From NCBI GenBank assembly GCA_019828545.1, contig JACVRA010000248.1, positions 248,001-312,000 of the forward strand: a DNA stretch of 64,000 bases, in the 5' to 3' direction. Positions 4,242 to 58,946 of the stretch are shown in pieces (position 1 is the stretch's first letter; every line of letters starts with the position of its first letter). The notes beneath the pieces were generated by a model. That model ran no database searches. It saw only the letters and a list, made by a program, of their open reading frames with translations, and was not told the DNA's origin. The stretch comes from Paracamarosporium sp. OC-R06-R3. Lineage: Eukaryota; Ascomycota; Dothideomycetes; Pleosporales; Didymosphaeriaceae. Position numbers and translations under genes: made by a program.

Positions 4242-6262
4242 TCATACAAAACGCATGAACTTCCACGCAAGTCCAACCAAATCCCACAATTCTCCATCCA
4301 TTAGCCCGTGAATATAACAAGCTCCAATAATTTCCCATCGATCCCCTCGGGACCTTAAGACCAGTGGCATTCTCATCCCTTGGAAAACGCAAATTTGATC
4401 TCCAATCCGCGTGCGGAAAGGGACCCAGCCAATTCTGCCATGTTGGGACACAAAAAAGTGTCTTGCGTCTCGAACTCTACCCTCAGCTTGCTCAAAAGGC
4501 TCAGCTAGCTTTCCGAGCAAGGTGCCGTAGAATGCCCAGGTCATGGGGTCATACTGCCAGCGTTTTTCCATCTGTAGCTTTTTCAAGAGGTACCAATATC
4601 CGAATGCGACCCCTAACTCGTTCCCAACCGACTGGTTTGGAGAGCTGTAATCAAAGCGTGGCCCACGATTATACAGGAGTGTCCGCCAAAAAGCATCGAA
4701 TGATTGTCCGTCCATAATGCTTTCTTGAGGGTCTAAAGAAGGATCTGCCAGTAGCCTAATCTCTGACAGCCAATGGACCATGTCGGTTTCATACTTGGAA
4801 ACTACTTCCAACGCCATGCACCCGTCGACGCGACCATCTCTTATGTGCTGTTCTGACGAAGGTACTTTTGGCCGCTTCCTAGCAATAATCCGGACTTGAT
4901 CAAAGACAGCTCCTTTGATTTCTATCTCCTGGGTTCGATTAGCGAGTCTGCAGAATCCGGTATCTATGCTGTCTTGAATAGACTCACATTCGGAACACAA
5001 ATTTTCCAGAGATTTGTAGACAAACTCGGTATTTTATGGAAACTTTTATCCATACGAACTTCTGGGGTTGGTAAAGGTCTCTTCTCTTGTAAGTAGAGAC
5101 TTTTATAGAATCCTGTCATCAATAATCCAGGGCTATGAGGCGAAATAAGATCAGGAACCCAAGAAGGCATACCCAATTCATGATTTTGGGGGTTTGCATG
5201 AAATGCCAACCATTCAATGAGGAATCTGTGCTCCTTGGGGTTTTTCTCTAGCACCAATATTTCAATTCCATCTTCTGTGATTCGATATTCTGGTATTCCC
5301 AGCAAAGTCATTTTGCCGACAAGGCAAGCAAGATCGGTGAAACTTTTCTGGTAGGAAATGAACGCTTCTGAAATCCCAGAAGACACTCCGGCAAGCGCAA
5401 AGAACCTATCTCGATCGTCTGTCGCTCCCATTCCCGGGTGTCTTGACAACGTGTCGTACAATGGAAGTGGGCCTTTCTTTTTGAAATCATAGTAGCTCTC
5501 TGCAACATTTCGAGCCTTGAGAGCAGACGCTTTGGGGCTGCCCATAAATATATCGTAATTTTCGTATAAGTTTCGATGTCGTGCAATCTGTATGGCTGTC
5601 CAAAGCACTACATCCGTGTTCAGGTTCAAAGATCCCTTCCATATGATAGATTTTCGGGCCATTAGAAGTTCTTGAATAACCCAAACTCGACTAAACCAGG
5701 AATTACTGATGATTCTGAAAAGTGCAATCCATTCAGAATTGAATCTAGGATTAGGTACTCCCCTGGATCTCCAATCAAAGTCGTGGAAGTCATAACGGCC
5801 GACATCTGCGTCATATTGGTTTCCGCGGCACTTTTGGTATAAGGCATTAGCGATATCCAACCCTTTCAAGTCGTCATGGTGTTCTTTCCCTAGCCAAATG
5901 ATGACGCGGTTGGCTTGAGCGTAGATTTTTGACATCAACCGAACTTGACATGTCTTCTCATCGGTATTATCTTGATTGATGCAGATCTGATCAGCCCAAA
6001 GTAACTTCATGGACCCGCGAAGACGCCTCTCATGTAGAGCTGCATGAAGATTTACTCCAATCTCCATTGATTTACCATCACATCTAATCCGTATCTTTTC
6101 AGTTTGGTCTCCCCATACGTATGAAAGTGCTTCAAACTCCGAACCGTCAAGGTTGCACTCCAAAAGCTGAATTGACAGTATGCTCTGCCTAGTGTCCGGG
6201 ATGATCTTTATAAGCCGGATGCTCTTTCCCTGTAGCGTTCGATGGTAAGTAAACGCACCCAT
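4242..6262 (-). CDS. HET-domain (heterokaryon incompatibility) protein
   Basis: Exons 4988-6262 and 4242-4928. The 59-base intron at 4929-4987 has GTGAGT, a CGCTAATC branch site and CCCAG, and joins in phase 0, giving 653 residues. The N-terminal HET domain carries the family hallmarks FEALSYVWGD (residues 43-52), LLWADQICINQD (88-98) and ANRVIIWLG, then WFSRVWVIQE and a DDRDRFFALAG segment. The C-terminal region has the usual GRIGWVP, GDQICVFQGMRMPLVLR and CYIHGLMDGE motifs. HET domains are TIR-like and trigger programmed cell death when unlike fungal individuals fuse, or on other immune triggers; the protein acts in the cytoplasm. The ATG at 6262 lies immediately before the typical N-terminal segment. 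It looks intact. Such genes are usually fast-evolving and lie in accessory regions. Confidence 0.9.
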
Positions 6263-7437
6263 TACGGTTTATCTAGTCGCGAAAATGAACAAGAGGGAAG
6301 AAACCCGGGTTTTGCAAGACCAACTATGAAGGTTTTGACGAAGGCTGCTTGAATGCATATAGTGTAGATATGCCAACCCTCGCTTTCCGGTGAGATCCTT
6401 GACCGGTAGCCGGTGAGCTTAGCAGGTGCCTGCAACATTTGAGTTATTTAACTTGTTAGATGAAACCCTTGTCTAACTACCGACATATATCTTCACGTTC
6501 CACAGATTCTGCCTAATTCGATTGAGTCTCAATCTAGGAACTTCTATAAAATTGAGCCTAAGATACCTTTGGAGTTTCACTGCGTAGCCTGCCATTGATA
6601 GAACATTCAGTGCTTTCAGTGCCTGATCCACCAGTTCCATTCATATAAAGGTTGTGTGCTTCCAACTGTTAGCGTCTGAATCCTTATAAGTTTTCTAAGG
6701 GGGGTAAGGCTTCGATCTAACGGCGCTAGAGATTAAGTCTAGCGCTCTTGCATTGAAGATTAGCCAACAATAGGACTGAGGGTGCTCAAATATTGAAAAA
6801 TAGTTGCGCATTTATCAAAGCCATTTCCGTATTAGGAAGACTTACTTCAGCGTCAACGAGACGAGCCGTAATTGTCTGGGAAGATGTCTAGTCAAAGCGC
6901 GTGAGTTGCATTGGGCATCCTGCACATCATCATACGAGGGTAACGCTTCACATTAGGACTCGCTCCCAAAGGAGAATCATAATACGAATCCTGCCATGGC
7001 CAGAGCTCTTTTCAAGCTTCAGGCCAAAAGCTACAGAGCTTGTTCAGCTGAGCGGTCAGCGATGCCAAGGCTGCTAAAAGCGTGCCAAGCTCACAGCCCC
7101 ACGAATGCCTGGAATATGATTGGTCAGGCAGCTACCGACGTCACCGCGCTCCCTTTGCGAGGAATTGCCTGATCTTGCTTCAGGATGTATGTTGGCTGTA
7201 CTGGCGATCTTTCGATGTGCGCAGCATGCCACCGTCAAACGACGCAGTGCTAGGTCATGGGTCCGGAGCTGAAGTCATAGCTTCTCGCGTTTATATCCTG
7301 CGATGTCCCCAACTTTCAACACTCCATACACATAGCATCAATCGATCCACAATAATCTAGAGTGTCGGCCTTCTCATCCCGGGTCTTTTTATTCACTTAT
7401 CTACAAGTCCAATCCTCCAGCTATTACACATACCAAC
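6263..7437. other. Intergenic, promoter regions only
   Basis: No coding frame is supported. The stretch must hold the 5' region of the HET gene and the promoter of the small secreted-protein gene; a TATATC box at 7292-7297 lies about 145 bases before that start. Confidence 0.4.
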
Positions 7438-44495: not shown

Positions 44496-47400
44496 TTATT
44501 GATCAAAAATTAGATCCAGCATACCGTCAGCCCCATCAATGTTCTCAAGATGTAGTTTGACTGCTTGTCGCAGTGCCGCAGGCAGTGGTAAGCCATGTTG
44601 CTTTCCAATGATCAGGCATTCTACAAGAGCTTTAAAAGCCTGCTTTTGAATTGGCCCTTGGCATTCTTGGGATATCAAAGCACTCATTGTTTGTGGGACT
44701 GCCTCAGCAATCAACCATCGGTGAGCACTGGGGTTGTCCTGGCAGAGGAGTAGGCATGATGCAGTAAGCATGTTGAGGAACTGACCCCGTCCATTTGCTT
44801 TTGAGCATTGAGCGAATTGGAAGATAGCCGTGAGGAAGAGAAATAACCTGGGGGAGTCGTGGGCTTTGCTGATTGTCATCAGCTCATTGGCGCATGCCTG
44901 GCTTGCATCACTGAACAGTTGATCCTCATAGCTGCTGCCGATATATCCTTCGTAGTACTCCGCGATAACAGTAGAAAAGTATTCAATCGGCCTTGGGTCT
45001 TTATTTTCAAGCATGCCGATGTGCGCTGTGAGAAGAACAGTCGTCCGGGTCACAACCTCTGTCCTTTTGCCACTCTGGATGCAGCCATCAAAATCAATCA
45101 GGAATTCGCAGACACCGTAGTGCAAAGACTCTCCCGCATCTCTGTGATAAGCAATGGACGCCCAGTGTGAAAACGCCCTGACGGTGATGGTATCCCCTTC
45201 TCTCTATTTGTGTCGGACTGTTGCGAGCTTGACTTCCGAGCCTACCATGACTGGAATTACCAGTAAAGCTTTAATATATGCAGTGGAGACTACTTGAAAT
45301 ATCTTGGTTGGGAGATCTGTCATGGCGGCTAGGTTTCTGGGGTTCCTGCCTACAACCACCCGTACTCCAAATTCGCGATATGCTTGCGTCCATTTTCGTA
45401 GTTTTTCCGTCTCATTGTTTTTGACAAGATATTGTAACCCGGACATCGCCTCCCAGCGACCAATCGACGAGTACTTCAGATAGAGTGTCACTAGTTGTAG
45501 AACGAACGGTATACGAAAGGAAAGACTTAGAGTTTTGATCATGATATCGACTTGTCTCGACGAATCTTCATACCGTGCTGCAAAAAGCTGTTCACGAAGC
45601 CGCAGCAGCTGTTCAACCCGCTCTTTCAATGATTCTGTGGGTTTCTTTAGGGAGATGACCCCTGGAGGAGTGGGTAATCCATCCACACGCGCTCCTCGTT
45701 GGAGTAGCAACTCGATGATCTCTCTGGAATTTGCCTGGATGGCTCGGATTAATGGTGTTTCGCCAAATCTAGCTTCGCCCTCGATCTGAGCGTTCCGACC
45801 TAGCAGTAGAGACACAACGTCCTTATGCTCCCCAGTAATTGCAATATGGAGTGCAGTTAAACTGCTTCGGTCTTTAGAATTTACACGGGCACCATGATCG
45901 AGCAAAAACTCTGTCACGTCTCGGTGGCCCCGAGTGGCGGCCCAGAAAAGTGGCGTCCTGCCGTAGTTATCCTTTCGCGAGGTAAGACGACGAGAGAAAA
46001 CATGGTCGGAGGCTTGCTGATCGAGTAACATCTTGGCCCAGGCTAGATTACCAAAGTACGCTGCTAGGTGCAGGAGCGAGAACGAGGGCGCAGCGCCGCC
46101 GTATTTCTCCTGCTCCCAATAGAATTTCCACCAATCATCCCGCACTGGAGATTCAGCTTGGAAAAAAGGACGCGAAAACTCAGACGGTCCATCGATCACA
46201 TTGACCGCATACCGAAAATGCTCTGGCCAGTATAGGCCAGCATAAGCCAAGAGCGAATTTTGAACAGAGTCGTCGCCGATGCTTCCTGAAGATTTGTAAT
46301 TTTCTTCAATAATTTCCAGGCACGTCCGCATAAGAGTCCAATGGGTGGTATGGGTCATGTGAAACATACTGATCCCATCAACATTGACTTGATTACTCTG
46401 GAAGAACTCTTTTGCTGACTCATGGACCAGATTTACTACATCTTCTTCAATCTTCACCAACATTCCGCAAGATACAAGCCGATTCTTCACCACTTCGGTT
46501 AATGTAGTTTTGTCAGATGCCTCGATCCTGGCTGCCACTGCTAATTCATTTACTGTAAGAGGTCGGGCGGCGAGAACGATCCATTGAAGGATGGGTACCA
46601 ACTTTTCTTTGTCTTCGACTTGATCGAGTAGCCGCCGATATATTCCACCAAGGCCTTTAGGAACACCACGAAGGATATTATTAATTTTGCGCCAACTCCT
46701 CCCTTTCAGCTCATTGGTGACGAAACCAACCCATAAGAGGGTTCCTTCAGCGCCGGCTAACAAGGCCCGCTGAACTTGCAGGATCATTTCCTCAGAAAGA
46801 TTTTGCTCGGATGCTAGCTCGGCAACCTTAGCGAAGATATATCTCTCGACATCATTCGAGATCTCTACATCCGATTCATCTAGTTTAATTCGATGATACC
46901 AGCTGAGCTTGCCGTCCAAAAATGCCGGCTGTGGGCGGGAGAGAAGAATGAGCTTCAAGCTTGGCCTTGTTTTCTCTTCAGGTCTTGATAGATAGTTCCC
47001 TAGGGCGTCAAGAAATTGCTCGAGAGATTCTTTATCGCACTCATCCAGACCATCCAGCACACATACTATCTGACAAGATCCTCTCTGTTGAAGTAGGGTT
47101 AGGAAAAGTCTCCACAGGGAGACAAAGCTGGAAATGGTGTATTTGGTCGTTTCAGACCCTTCAAAGGAGTCCTTGATGTGTTGTGCCAGGTGGGGATGAA
47201 GGTTGAGCCATTGATGTATAATGCCTCGCATTATCGTCACTGCCGTGTTCCGGTTCTTGTCACGGTTACTACAGAAGTAGTAAAGAAGAACATTCTGGGT
47301 CGAGTCAATGACTGACTGCAACACCTCCGTGATATAAATGGCTAGCATTGTTTTCCCTTTCCCAGGGCCACCTGATATCCAGAGTAGTGGTGGATTCGCG

Positions 47401-48494
47401 CCTGATAACCACTTTTGGTAGGTAGGGTGTTGTACCAGCCATTCACAGGTGCCGATTACATTCCGTCCTTTCAGTAAAATGAGAGAGTTTCGGTCAACTT
47501 CCGGTCTAGTCAAGAGCAAAGCATCGAGAACAGGTGCAGCCACCGCATACATATCTGCTGTCGGAGAAACTGGTTTTTGGACCGGGGGAATCGACGACAG
47601 AATCTCTTTGGCATATGCTGCCGCTACCGAGAATTTGGAACTATGTGAATCTGCATAGTCACAGATTCCTCGGATGACCAGGCACTGAGACGCATCCATC
47701 AAGCCAGCCGCCTCTGTCTCGAAACAAAGGATCCCATGCTCACGCGCCAACTTGTCTCGTGTCGCACCTTGTGTCATCAACTGGCTGCCAGACGCAACCA
47801 GACCATAATGAACACTAGGGCCCTGGGTCTCACGTGGTGGCCGATGACAGATCTTATCTGGGTTGCAGCCATTGCAACCGTCTTCCGCGGGCTCGTGGGT
47901 TGTATGATTATAATCCCAGTCAAAGAGAGTGTCCTGCTCCAGGCCTGGATGTGCAAATATATGGGGGTCTTTCTGCACAATCTCGGATAGGTAAGTGCGG
48001 ATCTGACTTTCGCCAAGGATGCTATTTGCCTCGGCCTTGCCCATCGCTGTGAGAAGTAGAGCTAATGGTTGATTTAAGACCTCGCTGCTTATAAACCAGT
48101 CTTCTGCGCGCCCGCTCCCCAAATTGTACTGGACGAGGCCGGGCCGGGCCGCTGTCGATTTACCCACAACAATATCGCCAAGAAAAATATCCTCCTTCGT
48201 ACTTAGCACGCCTCCTCCGATGCCGACCATCAGACTGAACCGGACGGATTTGAAGTTCGCGCGCAACTGCGTCTCGATGGCCGCGGCCGAAGTGATGCCG
48301 TACAGCCCAGAGTTCGGATAAGCAAGTACAACATTATGGTTGTTGAGACTCCCTAAAACATAGTTGTTGGTGTCGTTTGTAGTCGGATCAGCAGGTAGAC
48401 TGGCATGAATGTGATCAAGCATGGCCTCGGCTGCCGCCACCTCGACGGGCAAAGCACAAATCCAACCGACTATATAGTCATCTCGGAAGGCCAT
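44496..48494 (-). CDS. NLR-like immune receptor: PNP-NACHT-ankyrin, with in-frame stop before a further C-terminal segment
   Basis: Single-exon frame 48494-45204 (1096 residues), then a TAG (45204-45206), then the same frame continues 235 codons to 44496. The N-terminus is a nucleoside-phosphorylase-like PNP_UDP domain (VGIGGGVLSTKED near 90; CFETEAAGLMD near 257; RGICDYADSH near 275). A NACHT NTPase follows, with Walker A GGPGKGKT at 375-382 and Walker B VCVLDGLDECDKES near 478. The WHLVHESAKEFF-like VNLVHESAKEFFQ segment closes the NACHT region; then come about four ankyrin repeats (NYGRTPLFWAATRGHRDV and so on). The segment beyond the TAG is helical and HEAT/ARM-like (FSDASQACANELM, RLFLFLTAIFQFA). 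Fungal STAND proteins of this build sense non-self and trigger cell death. A 42- or 54-base intron ending AAATAG could remove the stop in phase, but its donors are weak. Confidence 0.85.
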
Positions 48495-49484
48495 ATCTAG
48501 GCGGTATGCGGCGGACCCGCGGTAAGGGACTATAGGGAGAATCGCTCTGGATAGGTAAAAGAATCAGTAAAGTAGAAAGTAGAGGACCCGGCCTCACAGG
48601 ATGTATTGAATTAGCTAGGGACGATACCCTAACAAATAGCACTACCGTGGAGCTAAATGTAACGCACGTCAGGCCACAACGCGTGCCTAACAATAAAATA
48701 ACACAGTTAGATCCACGGCTGTGTGGTTTTTCTTTTTTCTTTTTTCCAAAGAAAAAAAAGGGAAGGAAGATACTGAAGGCATAAGCAGTTCCACACGCAG
48801 CTCTGAGGCAAGACTTAGCGCACCAACCCCCTAAACCGAGCGGTTCTTCCGAGCATCCTACTCGTCCAATGCAATGATCACCTTCCCCACGTTTAGCCGA
48901 TATTGGGCGGTACGTTATACGGTGGTAGGAGGCGTAAGTAGTGTCAAATCTGGGGGAGCCTAGATCAAAAATAAGAGCCAGTTTCTGGCTCGTGAGCGTA
49001 ATTGGGGGGTACCTAACGCTCGGCGTCTTGAGCGATTTTTTTATGCAGCCAATCATTGCATGGGAATAGAGTGTGCAAGCTATAAATGGAAAGCTGTATT
49101 TTATTGGCAAAACGCTAGTCCTCGTTCCACAGTAGCATCGCTCTTACCCACCTACATCTCTAGAAAATGGCGGATCTTGACGAGTTGGCCTCATTGTCGC
49201 AGGAGCATTTTTTTCATCCTTCTCTGAGGACTGAGGTGACGCTGGACTCCATTATACTTATCTGACGCGCGACGTTCAAGCGGCAACCAATCCAACCCCA
49301 CCTTTATTGAACGTAGGATAACGCGCTTTGGCATGTGGCTAAGGGCACTGTTGATTACCTGGCTATCCTCATCGTTATCACCATCAGGCGGGCGGAAGTA
49401 TTCGAACATATCGAGATAGCTAGGCTTCTCCCTGCAGTGATCGTGGGCGGGGAATTCCAATCTCATCGGCTAGCGTTGAGAGTA
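48495..49484. other. Intergenic, NLR promoter side and an orphan TATA/ATG
   Basis: Holds the NLR promoter. A TATAAA at 49081 precedes an ATG at 49167 in good context (AAAATGG) that opens a frame of only 32 codons (MADLDELASLSQEH...), ended by TGA at 49263-49265. This looks like the 5' end of a lost gene next to the transposon. The minus-strand frame 48478-49110 has no recognisable features. Confidence 0.4.
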
Positions 49485-51173: not shown

Positions 51174-54100
51174 TTACTGTCCTCTTAGCCGTTTCCAAAA
51201 TTTGGTCATGTAGAATCGGGGCTCCTTCTCTTTGTCTGTTGGTTCGATTTTTTTATGAATATCCGCCTGTGAGGGTGTCGACGATGGCTGGTCCTGGATA
51301 CAGGATACGCCTCGGTTTTTGACGGCGAGTCTTATCTGGCGATCTGTTTCTGGATCGGTGGTTCGCTTTCTGTAACCTGCTTGCTGAAGCCGTGATAAGA
51401 CTGTTTGGTCAGGAATGAATTCTTCCCATGTCATGCGTCCTGCTGGGAGGATATTGGGATTAGCACCCCTAGCTAGAAACAGGTTTATCATAGGAACAGA
51501 GCCAATTTTGACAGCGTAGTAAAGTGCAGTCCTCCTCCCCGAATCTGTGCCATCGATAGAATATCCTTGTTCCAAAAAGAAGTTGACCATGGGGACATTG
51601 CCTTTGACAACAGCCTGCCGTAAACCTGTGACTGTCCTGCAGCAACGTGACTTACTGAAAGCTAAGTCACCGGTTGTTTTGTGGAGATAACTGCCTGGTA
51701 CAAAGTCTAGCCATTCTTCTGCAGCGAGACCATTCTCGTCGCCTTGGAGGCTGGACTCTGAAATGGTAGGACTACCAAGTAGAAGAGTTCTAACAGTAGC
51801 CAAATGTCGAATATGAACTGCCAAGTGAAGGGCCGACCAGCCATGATTATCCTGATGGGAAGCATCGAATCTTACCTGATCATTCTCCAAGAGGTATTTC
51901 ACGATGTGAGAATGACCCATGAAAGCAGCATGGTGTAGTGGAGTCCAGCCATGACATGTCGATGTGATAGGATCGGCCCCATGTTCAAGGAGTCGGCGTA
52001 CGATACTGTTGTGTCCTCCGTTTGCAGCACAGTGTAATGGTGAAGTACCATAGGAACTGACCGCATTCACATCGGCCCCATGCTTCAACAATAGATCCAC
52101 AACCTCTAGATGGCCCTCCTCCGCTGCATAATGTATAGCGGACCATCCTTCGAGATCACGATAATTTGGATCTACGCCGAATTTGAATAGCAGCAACCGT
52201 ACTGTGGAAGAGTTACCACATGCTGCCGCCTCTTCCAGTGGCACTATTTGCGAGTTTCGAGTCTTAGACATGACATCTGCTCCATTCTCTATAAGTAATT
52301 CCGCAATTGATGAGTAATTCAAACTGGCTGCCCAACCTAATGCAGACTTCCCATCGTTACTACCAGAGTTGACGTCGACGCCTAGGCTCAGTAGTAATAG
52401 GGTGGCGTGTTTTTGCCCAGTAACAACAGCCCAGAGGTATGGAGAGAACCCATAGTTGTCAACAATAACTTTGTCGCCATCGTTCTCAATCATTAGTCGT
52501 ATCGCGTCAGTAGAGTCCCTCTGGACAGCGTAATGCAGGGGTGTCTGGCCATAGTTATCTCCCGAATTGATCATATCCCTAGTCCCACATTCCAACAGCA
52601 GTGTCATCATATCTAAGCCCCGGGAACTGTTCATGGAAGCGTAATGCAATACTGTCATTCCGTCGCTTGATCTGCTGCGTAGATTTGCACGTTGGTCTAT
52701 AAGGGACTGAACCACGACCATATTGTGGTCTCGTACTGCGTGATGAAGCTTCGTAATTCCAGTTGTATCTTTCGCCTCCAAGTCCAGTCTTTGTACAGAG
52801 GGATTGATGTCTTCGTTGCTATTGCTAAAGACGTTATCTTCGTTTTCATTCTTGAAATCTAGGGCTTCATCATCCAGTACACTATACATGGATCCGCGCA
52901 ATTTTGCAAACCCAGCCCCATCATCCTCCAATGGTTGGTCGCTATCGACGTCAGTATTTTCATCTACATCGCTAGGTAGTTTTTGTAACGCAAGTAAAGC
53001 AATCTCTTTCATATGAGCGGCGACGTGTAAGTGGAGGGCTTCGCTCGAGAAGATCGGATTTGATGCGGCATCCTTCGGGGGTTGGAAATCGTCGCCAAAG
53101 GGACACTCCAAGATCTTCTCAAGATTTAGCGTTCGGGTTGCACTGCTAAGCGTTTCCACATGTGCCTCAGGGACGCTATGTTCGTCACGTAAGTGTTGCT
53201 GATATGGAGCCACCTGTTCAAAAATGATTGGGTCGTGAGAAGGGGCTCTACACTCCCACGCATGCCCGTGAGCGTTTTGCATGTGACTCATCCAGGCTTT
53301 CGATGTCTCGAATGTCAAAGATCCAGGCTCGTGTTGAATTGAGTCCATGCATTGGGGAAAGGTACAGACAAAAGGTTCTAGATCTCTGATAACATGATCA
53401 CTATCGCCGGTTAGATATGTCACTATGACAAGAATGATATGCTTACTTCCACATCATGTACTTTGTGGTACCTTTGAATTCAACAATAACGCCGCAGTAT
53501 GGACACTCGCTTGTGTTTGGCACCGGAGGGAATGATAATTTATTATTCACAAGAACTGACTTGGCCTGAGGACCCTCCACCGTTGAGTTAGCGTACAGGG
53601 ATTCGATAGCAGTTTGTCGAGCAGTAGTTGCATAGGTTATAGGTGCTGGTGGACGTCCAGTCGGGTTCAAACTTTCGTCGGGCGTGTTAGGCTTCGGTTG
53701 CACGCTTGTGGCGAAACGCACGATAGGGGCACTATTCGCTATCCTAGGTAGCTGATTATTTCTTAGGGTTTCCTGAGGATGCTGAACGCTTAAGTTAAGG
53801 CGTCTACGGTGTGATCTCTGATAACATAGTCGTCGAAGTCGCAGCGCATTGCCGTCGACCAATGTCGAACGAAGAGCTTCTGAGGCCTGAGGGAACCGGA
53901 AGCGAACGTAGCATTCTGTATAAAGACGCAACTCAGATATTGCCTTGTTTGCTTCCTTGTCCGCTCTGTATTTTCCGATTTTAGACATTCTCTTCGCTTT
54001 TGCGGACTTTCGAATGTCGCTTGACAAACGTACCAGACGTGTCACTGTTCCTCCAATATTATGGATGATCAACGAAATATTCGCCTGGACCTGATCCTCA

Positions 54101-54591
54101 TCACTTTCCATATCGTTTAAATCATCGTCGGCTCTCTTAATGGCTTCCTCGCCGCCTTTATCCGATATGCGTTGTCTCTTCGTACTCGGAGTCCGCGGTG
54201 GATTGTCGTCTGTCTTAACTACCATCAAAACTCTTATTAGCCTAAGGTCTAGCATATAATCTTACTGTGGTAACGTCTTACGAGATTTCAAAGAGTCACA
54301 AATTACGTCCAGAAGTTGATGGATTATCTCCGCAACCGTTGGACTGAATCGGAGCCTGTAATCTAACGAGACGTTGAGCGGCCCAAAGACATCCATGTTT
54401 GATGCCCATAAGGAAAAACGTGCTAGTTGATCGTCCATCATAGTAGGATCTGAAAGTATCCCCGGCATAGCCATGTATTTCTGGAAGAGATGGTGGCACT
54501 GCAATGCGTGTTCGGCGATAGTTGGGCCAAGGTTATCTTGGAGAAAGACATCTTCGATGGAGTCCAACTCGATGCGAGCCGGAACTGCCAT
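51174..54591 (-). CDS. C2H2 zinc-finger and ankyrin-repeat protein
   Basis: Three exons: 54282-54591, 53447-54218 and 51174-53400; introns 63 bases (branch GGCTAATA) and 46 bases (branch ATCTAACC), both in phase; 1102 residues. The start at 54591 opens the typical N-terminal helical segment; the frame is open further upstream. The middle has a basic stretch with an NLS-like KRQR, then a string of Cys/His motifs: ECPYCGVIVEFKG...MMWNDHV, FVCTFPQCMDS...WMSHMQNAH, and HLHVAAHMKEIALLALQ, as in the fungal C2H2 proteins linked to NLR and ankyrin families. About ten ankyrin repeats follow (GWSAIHYAAEEGHLEVVDLLL, GTSPLHCAANGGHNSIVRRLL and others), ending with a basic tail. Role unknown; likely a signalling or immune scaffold. 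It is divergent from the gasdermin-like gene. Confidence 0.88.
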
Positions 54592-55005
54592 AATGAGAAG
54601 GCTGTGCTGTGGACCATGGGAGATAGCTTGGGTTTGCACCAAAGATACGCAAGGTCGGCCTTTCGGGTCGTGAGAATGGGATCGCCTTGACTCTGAACAA
54701 TATATGAAGAGTCTAGAATTTAGTACAAGGATGTTGGAAGGCCCACGGCTCCGAACACGTCGTCTAAAGCAGCGATAAGGGGATGTGCACGAGGCTCGGC
54801 TAGGCAAATCCAGCCTCAAACTTGTCACCTCGACAAGAAGCAGAAATTGCTTGGCGCTTTTCGTGTGCAATGCTGCACAAAGCGGGGCATCATATGCCAC
54901 TATTTGAAAACTCAAGATTGAGAGAAGGCAGAACTCTACAGATACACGAAAGTCATCAAGAAGCTAGAAGTTAAGTCTGAAACTTAAACTTAGACGCCAA
55001 AAACC
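54592..55005. promoter_or_regulatory. Divergent promoter region of C2H2-ankyrin and gasdermin-like genes
   Basis: 414 bases between two divergent starts; could co-regulate both. Context of the gasdermin start is AAAAACCATGT. No canonical TATA box was seen. Confidence 0.5.
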
Positions 55006-55827
55006 ATGTCTTTCATCAAGACCTATTTTCTCTGCCCGACATCCGAATTTATCCATCCGCCTCCAGCCAGACCGCTGTTCCTCGGCTCTATCATCCGTTC
55101 GACATCAACACCGAATTTCCCTCTTAACGGAGCAAATATCGTTCCCGTAACCGACGAAAATCCACCTATAGTAGAAAATGATTGGAAGAAGACCGTTTCA
55201 GCCGTGACAGCGCATGGATTGGGTGTTTATGGACAATTTTTGCAGCTGGCTATAGGAGGGCAAGGCATAGGCCCTGAAGTGGATGCTGGACGTTCCAACC
55301 GAACGATGCACATGTTCGCATTTGACAACATCACGACCGTGTCGTTTGAGCCGACATTACAGTATGTTGAAGAAGCCATCAAAGCACCTGCTGTGCAGAC
55401 CTGGTTGAGAGAGCCCAAGCAGCGGTTTGCTCCTGTTGTCTCGCTCTTTCTCGTCACTGGTATGAAGCTAGTTAAGGGCGCAAGAATCAAGTACTCGAAT
55501 TCGGGTAGTACGGCAGCCAGGGGAAACATTGGCATCGATGTGGCCCCGCTTGGCGTGACCTTTGGCCACTGGAGCAGAATGAGTGATGAGACGGAATTTA
55601 ATCGTGGTTCTGAGTTCGTTTTTGCGTTCCGCGTCAGGAGGCTTAGATTCGGGCGCAAACTCAAGGTCGAAGAGCACAATAGGGGTGCTTTCCTGGCAAT
55701 TGGAACATATGAACATGACGATGAGGAATCTGTCTTAGTGGAAGAGGTGGATGATTCTGAGATCGAAAATGCGAGACTCGTTCAGGATGCAAACGAAAAT
55801 GGTAGTGTGTACTGCATTTCGGCTTGA
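55006..55827 (+). CDS. Fungal gasdermin-like pore-forming protein (RCD-1 / HET-Q1 type)
   Basis: Single exon, 273 residues, the usual size of fungal gasdermins. The N-terminal pattern (FIKTYFLCP, then PPPARPLFLGSII, about residues 3-30), the middle segment FEPTLQYVEEAI (114-125), FLVTGMKLVKGARI (148-161) and the late FVFAFRVRRLRF (204-215) match my recollection of the fungal gasdermin family, whose N-terminal domain inserts into membranes and kills the cell. After residue 233 a strongly acidic tail of about 40 residues follows (EHDDEES, EEVDDSEIEN). In HET-Q1 of Podospora a comparable C-terminal fragment is removed by the neighbouring subtilisin-like protease to free the pore-former. The protease gene is tail-to-tail here, 81 bases away, which is the main support. 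Family call by motif memory; no search was possible. Confidence 0.75.
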   Translation: MSFIKTYFLCPTSEFIHPPPARPLFLGSIIRSTSTPNFPLNGANIVPVTDENPPIVENDWKKTVSAVTAHGLGVYGQFLQLAIGGQGIGPEVDAGRSNRTMHMFAFDNITTVSFEPTLQYVEEAIKAPAVQTWLREPKQRFAPVVSLFLVTGMKLVKGARIKYSNSGSTAARGNIGIDVAPLGVTFGHWSRMSDETEFNRGSEFVFAFRVRRLRFGRKLKVEEHNRGAFLAIGTYEHDDEESVLVEEVDDSEIENARLVQDANENGSVYCISA

Positions 55828-55908
55828 TTATGATCCCCAGATCTTGCACTCGTCAAAGATATACACAGGATACGAGGATTTGAGGGTTGAAATATCAGTT
55901 TGATGCTT

Positions 55909-58900
55909 CTAATGATACATTTGTCTTTTGATATCCCTGATCTTGTTATAGACATGCTTTCTTGATAAACCCATATCAAACAGTGCATGAGGCGTGATAT
56001 AGTCATAGCTTGCCCCCCTCCTCTGCCTGACCATGCTCTTTAGTACCGCGTCCATGGATTGAAAGTCTTTTAACCATGGTCCCAGAAGGTCACTCCCTAC
56101 AACAAAACCCTGCTCTTGCTGTCGAACAAAGGATAGGATCGAAGCAGCAAGCCCAGCGGCAATCGGTGTTGCTACAGATGTTCCTGACAAGACATTGACA
56201 ATGTCATTGTGGCCATGCTTTCCTGCTGGCCAGTAAGAACAGACATGCTCACCGAGCAGACTGAAGTTGACATCTTTATCGTCAGCTGTCGGGTTGAACA
56301 AAGAAGGGTTCCCGTAGCCATCAGTCGAGTGTATACAATAAACGCCGGGATACTTCGCTGGAAAAGCTCGACCAAAGTTTGCTCCATCGTTTGAGGTTGC
56401 CGCGAACATTAATGTACGATTGTGTAATGCATTCGATATTGCGCTTTTCATAGGCTCGTGGTATTCACGAATTCCAAATGACATCGAGATTATGTCTACA
56501 TTCCATTCAGTGACTGCGTGATTAATCGCCTGTATGAATTAGCTTATGTACCATATCTGATCTGCTAGAGTAAGCCTTACCTTTGTGACTGCATCGTAGC
56601 TGTCGCTTGTCAGGGTTTCCCGATTTGCAACTCTAGCAATATAAATTTCGGCACATGTGGCTAGTTTAAGGAGAAGACCAAGAGTTTGGGTGCCGTGTCC
56701 AATTTCATCTTGAATGTCTAAGGGCTCTGTTTTGTGTACAAAATTCTTTACTCCCTTAATTCGTGGATCAAGCCGTCGGTCTTCTGTCATCAGAAGCGGA
56801 TTTTTAGGATCAAATCCGGAATCTAAGATTGCTATTCGTACCGGTTCGAATGTCCTGTACTTAGATAGTTGCATGGCAGTATCGAACGAGTCAACATGGT
56901 GATGAATAGAGGACAAAAGTCTGTCCATCCATTTTTCTGATAGTGCAGTACTGGCAAACTTTCAGTAAGGATTAAACCTTGGAAGAAATGGAAAATCACT
57001 TACTTTTGCCCAGAGATGGCCTGTTGGCTCGCGTCAAAAAAATGCACGCTTTCAGCAGATGAATGTCGGGTTGGCATTTGAAGTATCATGGTCGGGTCGG
57101 GTGAAGTACAGCTTTGAGATTTTGTCCTGAAAGCCGAAGGCAACGCCAACCTCAAATCTTCATTACTTTGTGCAGAAAAGCCGGACTTGCTTGTTGGTTG
57201 GCGGACAACCTCTCGGCCAATGACACCCCAGCAGAGTTCGTTCTCCCGAGGATCGAGGGGATTCAAATCCTCTAACCGAAGGTGCCACGATTTGAATATC
57301 TCTGATTCGAGCCGTTTGATGACATTCTGATAGAAGAGCCTTTGGACACTAGCGGATTCGAAATCAGCAGGCTCTCCCGCAGGATAGTATTCCCACCGTA
57401 GGCATGCTTTCGTGGCGAGGTAATAGTCTAAACCAGCGTCAACTTCTAGACTCTTGAGAATATCAAGGCTAGTGTAATAGTCGGTGATGACGTTTTGAGT
57501 GGTCTCTGTGTCATTTCGCCAAGACTCTACTGCTGTGCAGTAGTGAAGCTCACACAAAAGGATACCCAGTGCTAACACACTAGCATCAGGATGAATCATG
57601 TGTTTGGAGCTGATCAATTCAGCTTGGGCATTTCCAGGATCCATGTGATTAGCACGGATGGTTGGAACATGTTCCATGGCTAGGAAGGGTTTCGTGATGT
57701 CGGGTAGCTCTCCGTCCTGTAGCGGCCGAAAAAATTGAATCTTTGAGTGATCAAAGGAAGGTCGTACCCACGGCGTCTCTAAGAACGGGAGTAATGCTGT
57801 GGCAATTATGACTGCCAGGATTCGTTTCCCTTTGAGTGGTAAGGCCGATGAACCACCGCGTAATTCTTGTTGACGCTTGAAAAGAGCTGACAGAGATACC
57901 ATCTGAGGCAATTGAAAATCACCAAAAGTCTTGGGTTGAGGACGGAGCCTCCTAAACAAGCCACCCTCAAACAGAAGATGCAAGCAATTTCGTTGACTTA
58001 GTGACTCTGTGATACACTGGCAGATATGAGCGTACTCGGGAAGGACACTAGGTGCAGCCCCAGTTGCTATAGCCATGTCATTCTGTATGTCTCTAATTTC
58101 AATGCGTTAGTGAAAGCCATTGCATACATCCTTGAAGGCTTACTTGACCGTTATCTTAGCTTCCTGAAGTGTGATTGAAAGTAGAGATCGTACCCCAAAG
58201 AACACTTCGAAGCACGACTCGAGCTTAGAACCCTTGTTCCGTCGCGGCAGTGAAAGTCTCACACTTATTCCCGAGCAATTCTGACAAACACAAGTCCAAT
58301 GTATCTGTAGCCCGTAATGTAACGACATGGAATGTTTTCTCATCAGCATAGTAAAGTCAGCGTCGGGATCTACTATATCATCGCCCATAGGTGCCTCATC
58401 TCGAGGTAGGACTCGGCGCTTCTTTTCATCGATGTCCAGTCGTGCAAGCTCCTCGATCGCAGCGTCGTTGTCTCGTTTGCGTTTACTAATGCGGATAGTT
58501 GTACCTAGATTGGAATACGCATCGCAATTCGGGCACTCGACCAAGCCTCGAATTGCCTGGAGCTTTGGATACGGTACGGTATGGTTTAAGTCCTTTCCAT
58601 AGCCTCGAATTAGTGACCAGGAAATGAGAGGCTGAAAGACTGAACATCGCTGTGAGGGAATGTTACTTACGGAGACTGATGCCCGATCAGAGTCATATTG
58701 CACAAGATTTTCGAATGCTTTTAATGTTCTTGCTATTTGATCAGGATCGGACTCGTCGAATCTTTCGGTATTGTGATGTAGGTACGCGTCCGTTCGTACC
58801 CAGGCGTCGAGCACCTGTGACCTCAAGGAAGTGGGTGGCGTTGGTTTGTCCTGTGGTTTTCGAGCAAAAAACCCAAGGATACTCTTCAGGAGGCCCCGAG

Positions 58901-58946
58901 AGTCATCGCAATCCATGGGCGCACATTTGGCAGCTGTGGCTTCCAT
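55909..58946 (-). CDS. Subtilisin-like serine protease with long N-terminal regulatory region (DUF7580-like), HET-Q2-type partner
   Basis: Four exons: 58144-58946, 57004-58092, 56581-56950 and 55909-56529; introns 51, 53 and 51 bases, GTAAG donors, all in phase; 960 residues. No signal peptide, so cytosolic, unlike digestive subtilisins. Residues 1-630 hold a helical N-terminal part and a DUF7580-like region with kinase-C-lobe-like pieces (VIIATALLPFLETPW; ASVLALGILLCELHY). The S8 domain (about 640-900) has a full triad: Asp674 in RIAILDSGFD, His716 in EIGHGTQTLG, Ser872 in LSGTSVATPIAAG, and the oxyanion Asn801 in FAATSNDG. By analogy with HET-Q2 and related NLR-proteases it should cleave the adjacent gasdermin-like protein upon activation. 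An optional 39-base in-frame intron in exon 1 (GTAAGT...TTTCAG) cannot be excluded. Confidence 0.88.

What the first reader, a model, noticed from the sequence alone, without database searches (positions are those of the whole stretch)
55006..58946. Gasdermin-like gene tail-to-tail with a cytosolic subtilisin-like protease: a candidate fungal pyroptosis-like module
A 273-residue protein with fungal-gasdermin motifs lies 81 bases from a 960-residue S8 protease that has a complete Asp/His/Ser triad, no signal peptide and a large N-terminal regulatory part. Established: Podospora HET-Q1 (gasdermin) and HET-Q2 (subtilisin-like) are neighbours and the protease cleaves the gasdermin. Inference: this pair works the same way and is an allorecognition or antiviral/antifungal death device.
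Basis: partly seen in the sequence, partly recalled or inferred. Interest (0 to 1): 0.92.

Follow-up and report, generated by a model that had tools for sequence, protein, structure and literature searches.

The report
Fungal gasdermin, protease and sensor-like cluster
This fungal genome carries a gasdermin gene tail-to-tail with a subtilisin-type protease gene, and on the other side a gene for an ankyrin-repeat protein with a zinc-finger-like region; together they are likely a cell-suicide switch in which the third protein would sense trouble, the protease would cut the gasdermin, and the gasdermin would then punch holes in the cell's own membrane.

Summary
The pair is real. The 273-aa protein is a gasdermin by sequence: a profile of its family finds Neurospora RCD-1-2 at E=1.4e-11. 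The convergent gene encodes a DUF7580-S8 subtilase with intact Asp648/His690/Ser846; the best gene model has 934 residues, not 960. All five gasdermins found by direct search of this genome sit beside an S8 gene. So this is a fungal gasdermin-protease cluster, a published kind; cleavage and killing are inferred. New: the protease carries DUF7580 rather than ANK/TPR/WD40 repeats, and a C2H2-like ankyrin gene starts 414 bp from the gasdermin. In this genome 7 of 11 relatives of that gene lie within 5 kb of a DUF7580 gene (0.036 expected), including the three DUF7580-S8/gasdermin loci. I read this as a three-gene module whose separate sensor signals through DUF7580. That rests on one genome; the cross-species test could not be made, and the gasdermin model was too poor to show the fold.

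The parts
55006..55827 (+). Gasdermin-family gene, 273 aa, single exon
   Evidence: ORF; RCD-1-2 E=4e-5 by phmmer, 1.4e-11 by profile; bGSDM profile E=0.0011
55690..55692 (+). Codon of Phe229, the candidate P1 residue for cleavage; would leave a 44-residue C-terminal piece (inferred, not tested)
   Evidence: G227 and A228 in 120 of 120 and F229 in 118 of 120 listed relatives, followed by the least conserved stretch 232-242; HET-Q1 is reported to lose 40 residues after F238 (PMC10989679, passages)
55813..55815 (+). Codon of Cys270 near the C-terminus; Cys10 (55033-55035) near the N-terminus is also conserved
   Evidence: C270 in 116 of 120 and C10 in 119 of 120 listed relatives
55909..58946 (-). 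DUF7580-S8 subtilase gene, five exons: 58946-58671, 58592-58144, 58092-57004, 56950-56581, 56529-55909; 934 aa
   Evidence: splice model, no internal stop; agrees with relatives
57004..58592 (-). Region coding for DUF7580 (main match within 57000-58076; its N-terminal part reaches into the exon 58592-58144 by comparison with relatives)
   Evidence: Pfam DUF7580 E=1.7e-21 on the ORF 57000-58076; residues 170-502 of relative P0121, E=7.1e-28
55909..56950 (-). Peptidase_S8 domain with Asp648, His690, Ser846
   Evidence: Pfam on two exons, E=2.7e-6 over the cut-off and 0.0047 below it, whole domain in relatives; subtilisins best in PDB by profile of relatives (E=1e-20) and by Foldseek on the model of relative P0121 (E=2.9e-12)
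51174..54591 (-). Candidate third member: ankyrin-repeat protein with a C2H2-like Cys/His region; exons 54591-54282, 54209-53447, 53400-51174; about 1099 aa
   Evidence: splice model; Ank_2 E=2.5e-74; no Pfam zinc-finger match, the Cys/His region is shared with relatives beside other DUF7580 genes
54592..55005 (.). 414-bp region between the start codons of the gasdermin and the ankyrin-repeat gene (possible shared promoter, untested)
   Evidence: coordinates

Best explanation
This stretch holds a gasdermin-family gene convergent with a gene for a DUF7580-S8 subtilase, and the protease is predicted to stay inactive until signalled and then to cut the gasdermin near Phe229, which would free a pore-forming part that likely kills the cell. 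Shown here: family membership of both proteins by sequence, the intact catalytic triad, linkage of the two genes in other fungi, and the same arrangement at other gasdermin loci of this genome. Inferred: cleavage, its place, pore formation and death. Inferred with less confidence (about 0.45): the neighbouring C2H2-like ankyrin protein is the sensor, and DUF7580 is the receiving domain that passes its signal to the protease. What triggers it is unknown; surveillance of parasites or damage inside the hypha fits the conservation better than allele-based self/non-self recognition.
For: Gasdermin by sequence. S8 with triad. Nine have ordinal locus tags on both rows: 7 consecutive, 1 two apart, 1 (Cladonia) 123 apart. 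Co-inheritance: trees of the two proteins for these 27 species plus the window correlate (Mantel r=0.83, 0 of 9999 permutations as high; 0.82 with class removed), and both hold a clade of eight, window included, that mixes four classes (class labels from recall). Own genome: 5 of 5 gasdermins found by direct search lie within 3 kb of an S8 place, all convergent. A sixth, found by looking beside an S8 gene, is in tandem. Eight further S8 loci examined had none. Third gene: 7 of 11 family members within 5 kb of a DUF7580 place against 0.036 expected.
Against: The gasdermin model is poor (mean pLDDT 41.5); Foldseek's best three hits are RCD-1, but at E=0.013-0.052 with TM-scores of at most 0.29. 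No cleavage, pore or death was observed. Phe229 rests on conservation and a published analogy, without an alignment to HET-Q1. In 4 of the 27 linked species (Kalmusia, Pyrenophora, A. melleus, Capronia) the listed protease row has DUF7580 but no precomputed S8 domain. 4 of 11 C2H2-like genes (C67, two at C64, C169) have no DUF7580 place nearby, and 7 of 14 DUF7580 places, all weaker partial matches though over Pfam's cut-off, have no C2H2-like relative nearby. In the window the C2H2-like gene is head-to-head with the gasdermin, not with the DUF7580 gene as at the other six loci. Linkage of that gene in other species could not be tested. The permutations do not control for the species tree within classes, and only 8 of 25 bipartitions are shared.
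Confidence: 0.75

Rival explanations
1. Two-gene module only: DUF7580-S8 is both sensor and protease, and the ankyrin-repeat gene is an unrelated immune-type neighbour in a region with several such genes.
For: [quoted passage not shown] The window also holds a PNP-NACHT-ANK gene and a HET-domain gene. The C2H2-like gene here adjoins the gasdermin, not the DUF7580 gene. 4 of 11 C2H2-like genes lack a DUF7580 neighbour and 7 of 14 DUF7580 places lack a C2H2-like one.
Against: The six strongest DUF7580 places of this genome and the partial one at C234 all have a C2H2-like relative within 5 kb. The 10-kb stretches at C81, C49 and C209, whose gasdermin-linked S8 genes show no DUF7580, had no match to the C2H2-like profile at E<=0.01.
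Confidence: 0.4
2. Allorecognition (het) locus as in Podospora het-Q1/het-Q2: alleles in different strains meet after fusion and set off cleavage and death.
For: Same effector and protease families; HET-Q2 is reported to cleave HET-Q1 (PMC10989679, passages).
Against: High conservation (62-80% identity to the query in the 120 listed relatives). Both genes are intact and closely linked. HET-Q2 is a much shorter protein (388 aa).
Confidence: 0.12
3. The gasdermin works without cleavage, as RCD-1 does, and the protease has another role.
For: RCD-1 is the closest relative with a solved structure, and it is reported not to be controlled by cleavage (PMC12881547, passages).
Against: Linkage and correlated trees with a protease. 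A conserved C-terminal segment after a variable linker, beyond the stretch that aligns with RCD-1.
Confidence: 0.08
4. A regulated pore used for release of proteins or for hyphal development rather than death.
For: Conservation is compatible with a regular use, and a review raises secretion as a process to explore for these clusters (PMC12881547, passages).
Against: No positive evidence here; the characterised fungal gasdermins in the reviews kill cells (passages).
Confidence: 0.06

Closest known systems
Podospora anserina HET-Q1 / HET-Q2
   Same: Gasdermin of similar size (278 aa against 273) with an S8 protease partner; a short C-terminal piece would be removed
   Different: HET-Q2 is 388 aa (passages), this protease 934 aa with DUF7580; no evidence of allelic incompatibility. 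HET-Q sequences were not aligned here
Neurospora crassa RCD-1-1 / RCD-1-2
   Same: Gasdermin family; significant profile match over positions 20-217 (RCD-1-1) and 85-217 (RCD-1-2)
   Different: RCD-1 is reported to act by pairing of two allelic forms without cleavage (PMC12881547, passages); this gene has a protease partner and a conserved C-terminal extension
Q2L proteases, S8 or CHAT, clustered with fungal gasdermins
   Same: S8 protease next to a gasdermin
   Different: Reviews name ANK, TPR or WD40 repeats or an NLR core as the annotated architectures, and mention kinase-like domains (passages). Here DUF7580, a name found in none of the held papers, with repeats on a separate neighbouring protein
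Bacterial gasdermin-protease defence genes (bGSDM)
   Same: Pore former encoded beside a protease (reviews, passages); bGSDM profile matches at E=0.0011
   Different: Distant in sequence; eukaryotic, spliced protease gene; trigger unknown

Membership tests
Fungal gasdermins (fGSDM) | Sequence relation to a characterised gasdermin | tested here: met
   RCD-1-2 E=1.4e-11, RCD-1-1 4.7e-10 by profile; bGSDM 0.0011
Fungal gasdermins (fGSDM) | Gasdermin fold | tested here: inconclusive
   Model pLDDT 41.5; RCD-1 ranks first to third at E=0.013-0.052, TM-score at most 0.29
Fungal gasdermins (fGSDM) | Short C-terminal inhibitory segment behind a linker | tested here: inconclusive
   Conserved segment 243-273 behind variable 232-242; inhibition not tested
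Fungal gasdermins (fGSDM) | Oligomeric membrane pore and cell death | not testable with these tools
   needs an experiment
HET-Q2-like (Q2L) gasdermin-linked proteases | S8 domain with complete Asp/His/Ser triad | tested here: met
   D648, H690, S846 in the window protein; D in 33, H in 32, S in 33 of 34 aligned relatives
HET-Q2-like (Q2L) gasdermin-linked proteases | Gene next to a gasdermin gene | tested here: met
   81-bp gap in the window; linked in other species and at other loci of this genome
HET-Q2-like (Q2L) gasdermin-linked proteases | Cytosolic, no signal peptide | not tested
   no predictor was run; by eye no hydrophobic leader
HET-Q2-like (Q2L) gasdermin-linked proteases | Cleaves its gasdermin | not testable with these tools
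   needs an experiment
HET-Q2-like (Q2L) with fused ANK/TPR/WD40 repeats or NLR core | Repeat or nucleotide-binding domain in the protease itself | tested here: not met
   over Pfam's cut-offs only DUF7580 and S8, in relatives P0121 and P0126 and in the window exons
Protein-kinase-like fold for DUF7580 | Profile or sequence relation to protein kinases | tested here: inconclusive
   hhalign E=0.0023, probability 12.5%, register over the C-lobe; controls 0.043 and 0.7. phmmer of one DUF7580 relative (P0225) against PDB found nothing at E<=1; the 60 listed PDB hits of the protease profile are subtilisin-type proteases
C2H2 zinc-finger proteins (for the ankyrin-repeat neighbour) | Curated zinc-finger match | tested here: not met
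   no Pfam zinc-finger match in the window protein; zf-C2H2_4 at 0.043, below cut-off, in the C229 relative; the label rests on the shared Cys/His pattern
Fungal NLR (for the ankyrin-repeat neighbour) | Nucleotide-binding domain | tested here: not met
   over the cut-off only ankyrin families by Pfam; at C229 a separate following ORF matches NPHP3_N at 3.5e-9
Allorecognition (het) gene | Old balanced alleles causing incompatibility | not testable with these tools
   one genome only

The most novel reading that the evidence does not exclude
DUF7580 is a general signal-receiving domain of a fungal immune system: a neighbouring C2H2-like receptor with interchangeable C-terminal parts (ANK and TPR, perhaps also NACHT, kinase and Macro) signals to a DUF7580 protein, which drives death either through its own hydrophobic N-terminal helix (HeLo-like) or through a joined subtilase that cuts a gasdermin. 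One receptor family would then feed both necroptosis-like and pyroptosis-like endings.
Probability: 0.27. Interest if true: 0.78.

Novelty: new variant of a known kind. Interest (0 to 1): 0.5.

Why it matters
The stimuli that activate the putative sensors of these death pathways are called a major open question (PMC12881547, passages). If repeats and protease are split between neighbouring genes joined by DUF7580, the sensor becomes a defined gene that can be deleted or co-expressed. The C2H2-DUF7580 pairing at C46, C60, C172 and C234, where the genome searches found neither S8 nor gasdermin, would tie two kinds of fungal cell death to one receptor family.

Tried and rejected
Allorecognition as the first choice was set aside because of conservation and a full-length protease. 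The 960-aa model was rejected for the 934-aa one; an intermediate 922-aa model (used as query) was also dropped, because relatives keep the YPKLQ stretch it removes. A kinase-like fold for DUF7580 was tried: the first hhalign held two wrongly oriented sequences (L010, L013), and the DUF7580 scan used the same flawed set; the corrected run gave a better but not significant score. A bond between Cys10 and Cys270 was considered; a few relatives lack the tail cysteine, and the model is too poor to measure. A link between a C-terminal Cys and a DUF7580 partner was considered and dropped: C81, without DUF7580, also has a Cys near its end. A C-terminal CaaX motif was rejected because several relatives extend past it. 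The protease model of relative P0121 was good only for the S8 part. A PDB search with the sixth gasdermin (C21) found nothing. PF26164, precomputed for some gasdermin relatives, is not reported by the Pfam copy held, even for P0005 and P0006, so its name is unknown to me.

Literature: the primary paper on HET-Q1/HET-Q2 is not held. DUF7580 occurs in no held paper. Four searches (1, 0, 1 and 2 papers listed) showed no description of a C2H2-DUF7580 pairing in the listings; of PMC12258605 I read passages only.

Rows dropped before counts: the C306 match (outside the C2H2-like part of the query) was left out of the 11; for the 33 S8 matches were entered as 26 typed midpoints.
Full report
What is there. 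The window lies in a 43-Mb fungal assembly of 337 contigs. At 55006-55827 (+) an uninterrupted ORF encodes 273 residues; 81 bases beyond its stop codon lies the stop end of a convergent gene running from 58946 to 55909 (-). The second gene needs four introns. No RNA evidence was available.

Gasdermin. phmmer against PDB sequences gives RCD-1-2 at 4e-5 and RCD-1-1 at 1.1e-3. A profile of the window protein and 34 relatives gives 1.4e-11 and 4.7e-10 over positions 85-217 and 20-217. The PADLOC bGSDM profile matches at 0.0011. Pfam has nothing. AlphaFold2 on that alignment was poor (mean pLDDT 41.5, pTM 0.41). Foldseek still ranks RCD-1 first to third, but at E=0.013-0.052 and TM-scores of at most 0.29, so the fold is not shown here. 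Among 120 listed relatives Gly227 and Ala228 are kept in 120 and Phe229 in 118; residues 232-242 are the least conserved and 243-273 are conserved again, mostly ending in Tyr-Cys-[Val/Ile]-X-X. HET-Q1 is reported to lose 40 residues after Phe238 (PMC10989679, passages). I therefore place the likely cut near Phe229, by analogy and without an alignment to HET-Q1.

Protease. Pfam gives DUF7580 (E=1.7e-21 on the main exon) and Peptidase_S8. The triad is Asp648, His690, Ser846. PDB subtilisins are the nearest solved relatives by profile (60 of 126 hits shown) and by Foldseek on the model of relative P0121 (that model is reliable only in the S8 part). DUF7580 matched a small protein-kinase profile over the C-lobe at hhalign E=0.0023, probability 12.5%, against 0.043 and 0.7 for two unrelated profiles (the earlier one search is superseded). 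One DUF7580 relative found nothing in PDB by phmmer. A degenerate kinase-like fold is suggested but not established.

Linkage in other fungi. The protein searches give no gene neighbourhoods, but rows carry contig lengths and names. In 4 of the 27 the protease row has DUF7580 but no precomputed S8. Nine have ordinal locus tags on both rows: seven consecutive, one two apart, one (Cladonia) 123 apart. Trees of the two proteins from these 27 species plus the window are similar (Mantel r=0.83, none of 9999 permutations as high; 0.82 after removing class). Both contain a clade of eight, window included, mixing Dothideomycetes, Sordariomycetes, Eurotiomycetes and Lecanoromycetes (labels from recall), and within-class distances are only somewhat smaller than between-class ones (0.42 against 0.49; 0.58 against 0.66). 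The two genes have thus travelled together, by old paralogy or by transfer; the permutations do not control for the species tree within classes, and only 8 of 25 bipartitions are shared.

Other loci of this genome. A direct search found five gasdermin places. All five lie within 3 kb of an S8 place, on the opposite strand and converging (C104, C229, C81, C49, C209). A sixth, at C21, was found with an iterated profile while looking beside S8 genes (E=7.5e-14 in a small set; no PDB match), so it is no independent count; it is in tandem with its protease. Eight further S8 loci, fetched as 10-kb stretches, had no gasdermin above threshold; the remaining S8 places were not fetched. Three of the six partner proteases carry DUF7580: in one reading frame at C229, in spliced exons in the window, and in adjoining exons at C21.

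The third gene. From 54591 to 51174 (-), 414 bp from the gasdermin start codon and head-to-head with it, lies a spliced gene for about 1099 residues with a CPYC...HV..DL.PFVC region and ankyrin repeats. I call the region C2H2-like: Pfam finds no zinc finger in it, but its Cys/His pattern is shared with the relatives. Four searches of the genome with different members give together 11 relatives (C104, C67, C229, C60, C172, C46, two at C64, C21, C234, C169); C169 and the second C64 copy were each found by one search only, and the C169 match contains stops. DUF7580 has 14 places over Pfam's cut-off, six of them strong (68-113 bits). Seven of the 11 relatives lie within 5 kb of a DUF7580 place, against 0.036 expected for random placement (binomial 1.2e-15; clustering of immune genes would make this less extreme). 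These seven cover the six strong DUF7580 places and the partial one at C234. The other seven DUF7580 places (27-51 bits, matched only from profile position 114 on) have no such neighbour, and four of the 11 relatives (C67, two at C64, C169) have no DUF7580 neighbour; a corrected local DUF7580 profile found at most marginal matches there (E=0.0052 at C67 in a small set). At the six loci other than the window the C2H2-like gene is head-to-head with the DUF7580 gene; in the window the gasdermin lies between. In the window and at C21 the C2H2-like region shares its reading frame with ankyrin and TPR repeats. At C229, C172 and C60 an ORF that follows on the same strand matches NPHP3_N, protein kinase and Macro, but I did not resolve whether it belongs to the same gene. 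At C46, C172 and C234 the DUF7580 gene begins with a hydrophobic M-[SA]-G-L-E-[IV] stretch, and no S8 place was found there. The likeness to HeLo-type death domains is recalled; a HeLo match at C60 was 0.04, below cut-off.

Mechanism. The core (gasdermin held by its C-terminal segment, cut by the S8 protease, pore, death) follows the published pattern for fungal gasdermin clusters: about 80% lie near protease genes, about 60-63% S8 and 17-19% CHAT or cysteine protease (PMC10989679, PMC10197012, PMC12881547; passages). My addition, at about 0.45 for this locus, is that the C2H2-like repeat protein is the sensor and DUF7580 the receiver. Against it: a single genome, the unpaired members on both sides, the different gene order in the window, and no cross-species test, since the protein database was switched off.

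Novelty. Gasdermin-protease clusters are known, so the pair alone is a new member. The DUF7580-S8 architecture with a separate repeat-bearing neighbour is a new variant in what I could search: DUF7580 is in no held paper, and four searches listed no such pairing. Most subscription papers are not held, and the primary HET-Q1/HET-Q2 paper was not readable, so the protease architecture may be catalogued there, perhaps under the kinase-like domains that a review mentions.

Noticed in passing
window 45207-48563 (-): A fungal NLR: PNP_UDP_1 - NACHT/NPHP3_N - ankyrin repeats in one ORF, about 2.6 kb from the C2H2-like ankyrin gene; the region may be an island of immune-type genes.
   Followed up: partly
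window 4967-6268 (-): A HET (heterokaryon incompatibility) domain protein, E=1e-32.
   Followed up: no
window 55033-55035 and 55813-55815: Cys10 and Cys270 of the gasdermin are conserved in 119 and 116 of 120 listed relatives. A Cys near the C-terminus also occurs at C229, C21 and C81, not at C49 or C209; lipidation, docking or a bond are all possible.
   Followed up: partly
L052/L009 (C46), L053/L011 (C60), L054/L014 (C172), L055 (C234): Head-to-head C2H2-like and DUF7580 genes without S8 or gasdermin found; ORFs with a protein kinase (C172) and a Macro domain (C60) follow the C2H2-like region on the same strand.
   Followed up: partly
L032:670-1092 and L032:1697-2263 (+): Short ORFs on the far side of the C21 gasdermin resemble the start of the C2H2-like gene there by eye; one matches HEPN_Toprim_N at E=1.1e-4, below its cut-off.
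   Followed up: no
window 60074 onwards (+): An ORF that by eye looks like a PAQR/haemolysin-III-type membrane protein flanks the protease gene start; not tested.
   Followed up: no
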